Source of the DNA: Nitrosococcus watsonii C-113
GTDB lineage: Bacteria > Pseudomonadota > Gammaproteobacteria > Nitrosococcales > Nitrosococcaceae
Length of the DNA: 64,000 bases
Direction: 5' to 3'
NCBI RefSeq assembly: GCF_000143085.1
Contig: NC_014315.1
Location: 1,828,001-1,892,000, forward strand
Under the pieces are notes generated by a model. The model made no database searches and had not been told where the DNA came from. It saw only the letters and a list, made by a program, of their open reading frames with translations. Both the position numbers and the translations under genes were made by a program. The first letter of the stretch is position 1. Every line of letters starts with the position of its first letter. Positions 15,053-15,717 of the stretch are shown here, in pieces.

Positions 15053-15717
15053 TATCACCTCCTTCCCACCGAAAACCTATTACAATCCCTATCGTATAAT
15101 GCGATAACTTTTGGAGAGAAAGAACCGGTATCTTTAAAAATTGGGACATTCCGTTTCTCCAGCGCTCCTATTTTTATCTTAGCCTCCATTGGTAAATTAT
15201 GCTTAAATATGCTGTAAGTGGTGAAGTATGCACCCGCAAAGATTTAAATGCCTGGAGATATGGAAGTTTTGGCAAAATTAAGAGATTCAACTCTATATTA
15301 GGGGCTTGACAATTCCAAAATTTACCGTTTTTACAAAAAAGTTTTCAACAGATCATCCTTCATTCCAAGGACAAGTTCTCTCGCTTAGGCGCTAACTTCA
15401 AGTCTTCTAAGAAATTTTTTATAACTATATGATTTATAAAATAATTTTAGATTGGCTATTTTTTCACCGATTTGTAAAAAAGCATGGTAGTTGGGGCTTA
15501 GCAGGAGAGCATCCTCTCTTTATCCACAGACTTATCCACAATAATTGTGGATAAGTCTGTTCCTGTTATTTTCACTATTTTCCAGTTTAATAGCTGACTC
15601 CTCCAAGTGCCTATTATCTCTTCCGAATAGAAGCAGGAATACTCTCGGATATTATTATCTTCCGATAAATAACTATACTCTTTAAAGTTACAAAGACACG
15701 ATCAAAGGAGCAACAGG
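15053..15717. other. Long intergenic region with AT-rich stretch and DnaA boxes
   Basis: About 660 bases without a gene between the divergent gpmA and adhC. It contains an extreme AT-rich stretch (15411-15480, with about 12 G/C in 70 bases) followed 40 bases later by the DnaA-box palindrome listed separately. The right 100 bases must hold the adhC promoter. I see no open frame worth naming. Confidence 0.7.
15520..15560. promoter_or_regulatory. Three perfect DnaA boxes, two forming a 35-bp palindrome
   Basis: The consensus DnaA box TTATCCACA occurs at 15520-15528 and 15532-15540, and in reverse at 15546-15554. The second and third lie in a perfect inverted repeat with 17-base arms (15526-15542 and 15544-15560) around one central base. 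No T-run follows, so this is not a normal terminator. An origin-like or DnaA-titration site is one reading; a DnaA-controlled promoter region or a dyad operator for adhC is another. Confidence 0.6.

What the first reader, a model, noticed from the sequence alone, without database searches (positions are those of the whole stretch)
15411..15560. DnaA-box cluster with 35-bp palindrome next to a very AT-rich stretch, far from dnaA
Three exact TTATCCACA boxes occur within 35 bases, two as part of a perfect 17-base-arm inverted repeat, 40 bases from a 70-base stretch with about 12 G/C. Elsewhere in the window I noticed only one exact box, inside purL. This has the look of an origin (boxes plus unwinding element) or of a DnaA-titration/reactivation site like datA or DARS, but the flanking genes are gpmA and adhC, not replication genes.
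Basis: partly seen in the sequence, partly recalled or inferred. Interest (0 to 1): 0.65.

Follow-up and report, generated by a model that had tools for sequence, protein, structure and literature searches.

The report
DnaA-recycling site (DARS), not origin
The three-box palindrome is not a replication origin but most likely a DARS, a DNA switch that recharges the replication starter protein DnaA, and the same layout recurs in about half of the related genomes sampled.

Summary
In detail: three exact DnaA boxes, a perfect 35-bp palindrome and a 12-of-70 G/C stretch lie in the gpmA-adhC gap. It is not an origin. oriC is in the dnaA-dnaN gap, about 1.5 Mb away, and GC skew is negative throughout the window. 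Read on the minus strand, the boxes run I(+)-5 nt-II(-)-3 nt-III(-), exactly the core of E. coli DARS1 and DARS2. With 225 spacing combinations allowed, 120 of 121 matches in 369 genomes of the class had this one geometry; reversed control 0. None of 46 fetched copies has dnaA or dnaN in the stretch held. Right of box III an IHF consensus peaks at exactly +86 and a Fis-type 15-mer at +52 across families; the window copy has both, each with one mismatch. So the AT-rich stretch is probably an IHF (and perhaps Fis) module, not an unwinding element. The unit is kept in all four same-genus genomes examined and in a sister genus. It was not found, at exact-box level, in a family member lacking DnaA, Hda and Fis. 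DnaA binding and ADP release are inferred, not tested.

The parts
15546..15554 (-). DnaA box I of the DARS core (TTATCCACA read on the minus strand)
   Evidence: geometry as E. coli DARS1/DARS2
15532..15540 (+). DnaA box II (head-to-head with box I, 5-nt spacer)
15520..15528 (+). DnaA box III (same orientation as box II, 3-nt spacer)
15526..15560 (.). 35-bp perfect palindrome = boxes I and II plus symmetric flanks; the symmetry beyond the boxes is not kept in copies L007 and L008 of relatives, the three boxes are
   Evidence: copies
15454..15468 (-). Fis-type 15-mer GGTGAAAAAATAGCC at +52..+66 from box III, 1 mismatch to GNNYRNNWNNYRNNC (consensus recalled). Weak alone: the 200-nt flank has four such 1-mismatch matches (+10, +24, +52, +155); supported only by the class-wide peak at +52
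15422..15434 (-). IHF-type site AATCATATAGTTA at +86..+98 from box III, 1 mismatch to WATCARNNNNTTR; predicted only
15411..15480 (.). AT-rich stretch (12 G/C of 70) that contains the predicted IHF and Fis-type sites
15422..15560 (-). whole predicted DARS unit (core + Fis-type + IHF-type site)
14321..15058 (-). flanking gpmA (His_Phos_1)
15718..16830 (+). flanking adhC (zinc alcohol dehydrogenase)

Best explanation
The site is a DnaA-reactivating sequence (DARS). ADP-DnaA binds boxes I and II head-to-head, with box III stabilising the complex. IHF, and perhaps Fis, bound on the box III side bend the DNA so that the DnaA protomers release ADP. Apo-DnaA then leaves, binds ATP and can start the next round at oriC (dnaA-dnaN gap). 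SHOWN here: the boxes and their geometry, the phased right-hand motifs, conservation, distance from oriC, and the presence in the genome of DnaA (with residues that E. coli DnaA uses at DARS), Hda, IHF-alpha and a Fis homologue. INFERRED: binding, ADP release, timing, and that the +52 motif is bound by Fis.
For: Core identical in box number, orientation and both spacers to E. coli K-12 DARS1 and DARS2; PMC5742627 (passages) says the spacing is the same at both and box I is opposite to II and III. Class scan: 190 of 369 genomes with <=2 mismatches, reversed control 0. Spacing-free scan over 225 combinations: 99 of 369 genomes, 120 of 121 matches span exactly the 9-5-9-3-9 length, control 0 (recount). 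0 of 46 fetched copies has DnaA or DnaN in the stretch held, up to 1.5 kb a side (the queries find two positive-control loci). One copy per family (24 usable of 25 families): IHF consensus <=1 mm at +86 in 13 (300-rotation null mean 1.68, max 4); Fis-type 15-mer <=1 mm at +52 in 15 (null mean 3.24, max 5). Unit present in 4 of 4 same-genus genomes (own included) and 1 of 2 other same-family genomes, 7 units with the same spacers. Local synteny with a patatin-like gene kept. G000 has IHF-alpha, a Fis homologue, Hda (TIGR03420 over its cut-off) and DnaA. DnaA equivalents of R227, D269, R285 and L290 are identical. G005, which lacks DnaA, Hda and Fis, also lacks the exact palindrome.
Against: No binding or biochemistry. 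The window's IHF and Fis-type sites each carry one mismatch, and its flank has four 1-mismatch Fis-type matches. The Fis pattern was recognised in the profile before it was tested, so that test is partly circular; the IHF consensus was chosen beforehand. One of 7 own-family copies (L003) has no IHF match at <=1 mm. 179 of 369 class genomes have no core match at <=2 mm; in the sister family of the same order 1 of 53 genomes has even the exact inverted pair. E. coli DARS2 itself has 4 mismatches to the pattern and would be missed. 11 non-gamma loci (families f212, f216, f229) have the core geometry but 0 of 11 an IHF match at +61..+110, so the geometry alone does not prove the full unit. The order core-Fis-IHF would differ from the published DARS2 order core-IHF-Fis.
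Confidence: 0.85

Rival explanations
1. A second or the main chromosomal origin: boxes recruit ATP-DnaA and the AT-rich stretch is the unwinding element.
For: Box cluster next to a very AT-rich stretch.
Against: GC skew is negative in all 16 blocks of 4 kb of the window, no switch at 15.5 kb. Sampled skew changes sign near 0 and between about 1.55 and 1.70 Mb, where a dif-like site lies at 1589480. The dnaA-dnaN gap carries six boxes with <=1 mismatch and AT-rich DNA. The AT-rich part of the site is phased as an IHF/Fis-type module across families.
Confidence: 0.02
2. A passive DnaA titration site or a datA-like inactivation site: it soaks up DnaA or promotes ATP hydrolysis.
For: Three consensus boxes and an IHF-type site.
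Against: datA needs DnaA boxes on both sides of its IHF site (PMC4585315 passages); here the next box with <=1 mismatch beyond the predicted IHF site is inside gpmA, about 600 nt away. Titration does not explain why one spacing makes up 120 of 121 matches.
Confidence: 0.08
3. A DnaA-controlled operator for adhC or gpmA (or, in other genomes, priA).
For: The palindrome ends 157 nt before the adhC start. 17 of 46 class-wide units lie close to a priA start. One of 46 (L133) has an AdhC-like gene in the locus, about 0.8 kb away.
Against: Neighbour genes change between species while the unit stays: gpmA/adhC in G000 and G002, a patatin-like gene in G001 and G003, other genes in G004. 0 of 80 adhC loci of other bacteria, up to 6 kb of flank each, hold the core at <=2 mm. 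29 of 46 class-wide units have no priA hit. A DARS could still affect a neighbour as a side effect.
Confidence: 0.04
4. A transcription terminator or RNA hairpin.
For: The strand folds strongly as RNA, -28.9 kcal/mol, z -7.8.
Against: No run of U directly after the stem. The symmetry beyond the boxes is lost in copies L007 and L008 while the three boxes stay. A terminator would not need box III or the +52 and +86 motifs.
Confidence: 0.01

Closest known systems
E. coli DARS2 (upstream of mutH)
   Same: Core I(+)-5-II(-)-3-III(-), intergenic; box III side followed by an IHF-type match (E. coli +75, window +86, each 1 mm)
   Different: Window boxes are all consensus, E. coli's are degenerate; the E. 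coli flank has its one Fis-type match at +111, beyond the IHF match, the window's are at +10, +24, +52 and +155 (all 1 mm); the window site is at 0.854 of the arm, E. coli DARS2 at 64 min (PMC5742627), which I recall as mid-arm
E. coli DARS1 (bioD-uvrB gap)
   Same: Same core geometry; boxes I and II near or at consensus
   Different: DARS1 works without IHF or Fis in vitro (PMC5742627 passages); no IHF match at <=1 mm in its 200-nt right flank, Fis-type 1-mm matches only at +9, +32, +41
E. coli datA
   Same: DnaA boxes plus an IHF site away from oriC (PMC4585315, PMC4245941 passages)
   Different: datA needs boxes on both sides of its IHF site; its sequence was not fetched or compared
oriC of this genome (dnaA-dnaN gap)
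   Same: DnaA boxes and AT-rich DNA
   Different: Six scattered boxes (one exact) beside dnaA, at the skew change; the exact inverted pair occurs in this genome only at the window site

Membership tests
DARS | Three DnaA boxes I-III, box I opposite to II and III | tested here: met
DARS | Same spacers as DARS1 and DARS2 (5 and 3 nt) | tested here: met
   PMC5742627 passages
DARS | Intergenic, outside oriC, between oriC and terminus | tested here: met
   659-nt gap, 0.854 of the arm from oriC
DARS | Partner proteins present: DnaA with R227, D269, L290; Hda; IHF; Fis | tested here: met
   IHF-beta not examined; the Fis partial sequence scores below the NCBIfam cut-offs
DARS | Stimulates ADP release from DnaA; prefers ADP-DnaA | not testable with these tools
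   needs biochemistry
DARS2 subtype | IHF site on the box III side at fixed distance | tested here: met
   1-mismatch site at +86 in the window; class-wide peak at +86. Sequence prediction only
DARS2 subtype | Fis site distal to the IHF site (FBS2-3) | tested here: inconclusive
   window: one 1-mismatch match at +155, no 0-mismatch match; class-wide the only strong peak is at +52, proximal to the IHF site. Not filed as DARS2
oriC | GC-skew switch at the site | tested here: not met
oriC | Next to dnaA/dnaN | tested here: not met
datA | DnaA boxes on both sides of an IHF site | tested here: not met
   no box with <=1 mismatch beyond the predicted IHF site within the gap; layout from PMC4585315 passages

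The most novel reading that the evidence does not exclude
The E. coli DARS elements are derived forms of an older, portable unit of about 135 bp (core + Fis-type site at +52 + IHF site at +86) shared by gammaproteobacteria and at least one further lineage of the phylum (family label f208). It often sits beside priA, moves between gene neighbourhoods with its internal phasing kept, can occur as a close pair (G001, G003), and goes missing together with DnaA, Hda and Fis. With Fis inside IHF, the bend that drives ADP release would differ from DARS2. (Odds lowered from 0.5 to 0.45 on checking: the window copy also has a distal 1-mismatch Fis-type match at +155.)
Probability: 0.45. Interest if true: 0.65.

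Novelty: new member of a known kind. Interest (0 to 1): 0.5.

Why it matters
In the passages I read, the detailed layout of DARS2 was compared in seven E. coli-proximal species (PMC8682772) and the core called specific to gammaproteobacteria related to E. coli (PMC4245941); reviews speak of E. coli-proximal beta/gamma species (PMC5742627) and of similar sequences in many proteobacteria (PMC10380432). A searchable 9-5-9-3-9 signature with phased partner motifs lets the DnaA-recycling switch be mapped in about half of the sampled genomes of the class (190 of 369), makes its evolution testable, and offers a relative without DnaA and the priA link as natural experiments.

Tried and rejected
One search used a 4-nt spacer by mistake and is void; one search repeated it with 3-7 nt. 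Origin, datA, operator and terminator readings: see rivals. Leading-strand bias of exact boxes: present but modest, not pursued. A second unit in the G000 patatin-PhyH gap: no box there, not pursued further. L001 and L002 (palindrome without box III) set aside. 80 named adhC loci were fetched to look for the site beside adhC elsewhere: 0 of 80 hold it. Class-level loci were read for 46 of the matches only; 20 non-gamma loci were chosen by me from the listed part, favouring near-consensus boxes, plus 3 fetched by that call.

Literature, held library only: eight searches on Nitrosococcus origins, DARS2 with IHF, DARS in gammaproteobacteria, DARS with Pseudomonas/Vibrio, DARS with priA, DARS2 with Pseudomonas, DARS with Nitrosococcus, and DARS conservation. 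None of the listings or passages I saw reports this site or a DARS-priA link; one search matched 313 papers of which 20 were listed, and most listed papers were not opened. Papers seen as passages only: PMC4245941, PMC8682772, PMC4585315, PMC5742627, PMC10380432, PMC13220808, PMC12371093. All others: listings.

Full report
OBSERVATION. The genome has 37 exact boxes, so three in 35 bp are far beyond chance (about 1.5e-6 expected). The contig sizes fit, from recall, Nitrosococcus watsonii C-113 for G000, and N. oceani, N. halophilus and N. wardiae for G002, G001 and G003; these names come from memory and no call.

NOT AN ORIGIN. dnaA (C1:133-1491) is followed by a 554-bp gap with six boxes of <=1 mismatch, then dnaN. 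Twenty sampled stretches (398 kb) give positive GC skew from 0 to 1.38 Mb and negative skew from 1.70 to 3.17 Mb; the 20 kb at 1.53 Mb are mixed. A dif-like site lies at 1,589,480. All 16 blocks of the window are negative. The site, at 1,843,520, is 0.854 of the way along its arm. Skew was sampled in G000 only.

THE CORE IS A DARS CORE. Read on the minus strand the site is TTATCCACA-5 nt-TGTGGATAA-3 nt-TGTGGATAA. E. coli K-12 DARS1 (L111) and DARS2 (L112) have the same orientation and the same spacers. PMC5742627 (passages) states that both have the same spacing, with box I opposite to II and III; PMC10380432 (passages) states that the head-to-head pair is characteristic of DARS and functionally essential.

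CLASS-WIDE GEOMETRY. With this geometry and <=2 mismatches 190 of 369 genomes of the class match (147 of 272 genera), reversed pattern 0; 179 do not match. With spacers free (15 x 15 combinations), box II exact, eight of nine bases of box I exact and a loose box III, 99 of 369 genomes match with 121 rows, 120 spanning exactly 35 bp and one 37 bp (G235), control 0 (recount). For the loci fetched the inner spacing was checked by script; for the other rows by reading the printed matches. Of 46 loci fetched (25 families), 0 have DnaA or DnaN in the stretch held, which is up to 1.5 kb a side and less in seven loci; 45 of 46 cores are not inside an ORF of 150 aa or more. So these are not origins beside dnaA.

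THE AT-RICH PART. With an IHF consensus chosen beforehand, 13 of 21 matches within 400 nt of the 46 cores fell into one 20-nt bin, +80..+99 on the box III side; block shuffles gave 3.65 matches in all. The column profile then showed a 15-mer at +52..+66 that I recognised as Fis-like. IHF <=1 mm: 20 of 46 at exactly +86, 28 of 46 in +82..+92. Fis-type 15-mer: 15 of 46 with 0 mm at exactly +52, 37 of 46 with <=1 mm in +50..+55; 25 of 46 have both, 6 neither. With one locus per family (n=24) the peaks are 13 (IHF, +86) and 15 (Fis-type <=1 mm, +52) against rotation-null maxima of 4 and 5. The Fis test followed the recognition of the pattern, so it shows a phased motif, not that Fis binds it. The window has an IHF match at exactly +86 (15422-15434) and a Fis-type match at exactly +52 (15454-15468), each with one mismatch; Fis-type 1-mm matches also occur at +10, +24 and +155. 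Of 7 own-family units 6 have the IHF match (+86..+88) and 7 the Fis-type match (+52/+53) at <=1 mm. In E. coli DARS2 the IHF match on this strand is at +75, about one helical turn closer, and its Fis-type match at +111; published work places FBS2-3 beyond IBS1-2 (PMC4245941 passages). The order therefore seems to differ, and I do not file the site as DARS2. I do not know where E. coli FBS1 lies.

RELATIVES. Among 59 genomes (own included) 6 have the exact inverted pair: the 4 of the genus, 1 of 2 others of the family (G004), and 1 of 53 of a sister family (G013, palindrome only). The three-box unit occurs seven times in the first five. G001 and G003 carry two units, one on each side of a patatin-like gene; G000 and G002 keep one, now separated from that gene by adhC and fghA. 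In G004 the neighbours are different. Positions along the arm, from dnaA and dif: G000 0.854, G002 0.835, G003 0.678, G004 0.817, G001 0.425; in G001 dif makes the arms very unequal, so that value is uncertain.

PARTNERS. G000 has IHF-alpha (TIGR00987 over its cut-off), a Fis homologue (51% identical to E. coli Fis over 75 residues; the partial sequence scores below the NCBIfam cut-offs), Hda (TIGR03420 over its cut-off) and DnaA. DnaA keeps R227, D269, R285 and L290. G005, same family and 98% complete, has no DnaA or Hda match (the family search rings in 14 of 14 control genomes, 13 over the cut-off), no Fis match and no exact palindrome, but has IHF-alpha and dif; its contig has rnpA and yidC-like ORFs at one end and dnaN at the other, with no dnaA ORF in the 8 kb read at either end (ORF names by eye). 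This is one lineage, so the shared loss is suggestive only.

BEYOND THE CLASS. In 398 genomes drawn from the phylum (class members included) 138 match, control 0. Of the non-gamma loci read, nine of nine of family f208 have the Fis-type motif at +51/+52 with 0 mm and 5 of 9 an IHF match at +85/+86; 11 loci of f212, f216 and f229 have the core, 0 of 11 an IHF match and 4 of 11 a Fis-type match at <=1 mm somewhere in +41..+65; 3 others all have the Fis-type motif at +52/+53 with <=1 mm and no IHF match. None of these 23 has a DnaA, DnaN or PriA match.

NEIGHBOURS. 17 of 46 class-wide units lie close to a priA start, priA being read away from the core on the box I side (domain identified in L128; counts); 6 have a HemW-like gene in the locus, and one an AdhC-like gene. 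For the window the neighbours are ordinary metabolic genes. 0 of 80 adhC loci elsewhere hold the core.

VERDICT. A DARS element by core geometry and context, a new member of a known kind, with an internal layout that looks old and may differ from DARS2. PMC10380432 already says that DARS-like sequences occur in many proteobacteria; the quantified geometry, the phased +52/+86 motifs, the priA link and this site I did not find in print in the searches listed under Tried and rejected.

Noticed in passing
G005:C1 ends (L165, L190): A 98%-complete single-contig relative of the same family shows no dnaA, hda or fis match; dnaN and gyrB are there with no recF-sized ORF between them.
   Followed up: partly
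G000 whole genome: Exact TGTGGATAA is leading-strand biased: 28 of 32 chromosomal boxes outside the site, against 61% for same-composition 9-mers (p 0.001), but 7.6% of 132 comparable 9-mers are as biased.
   Followed up: partly
L171 (4286, 5861) and L172 (5226, 6774): Two DARS-type units about 1.55 kb apart flank a patatin-like gene in G001 and G003.
   Followed up: partly
L123, L125-L130, L134, L140-L142, L145, L146, L151, L155, L157, L158: DARS-type units close to the start of priA in 17 of 46 class-wide loci.
   Followed up: partly
L001, L002: Bare 23-bp box palindromes without box III in G013 and on a 65.8-kb contig of G001.
   Followed up: no
L203-L212, L222: Non-gamma loci (f212, f216, f229) with the core geometry but no IHF match; nature unknown.
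   Followed up: no
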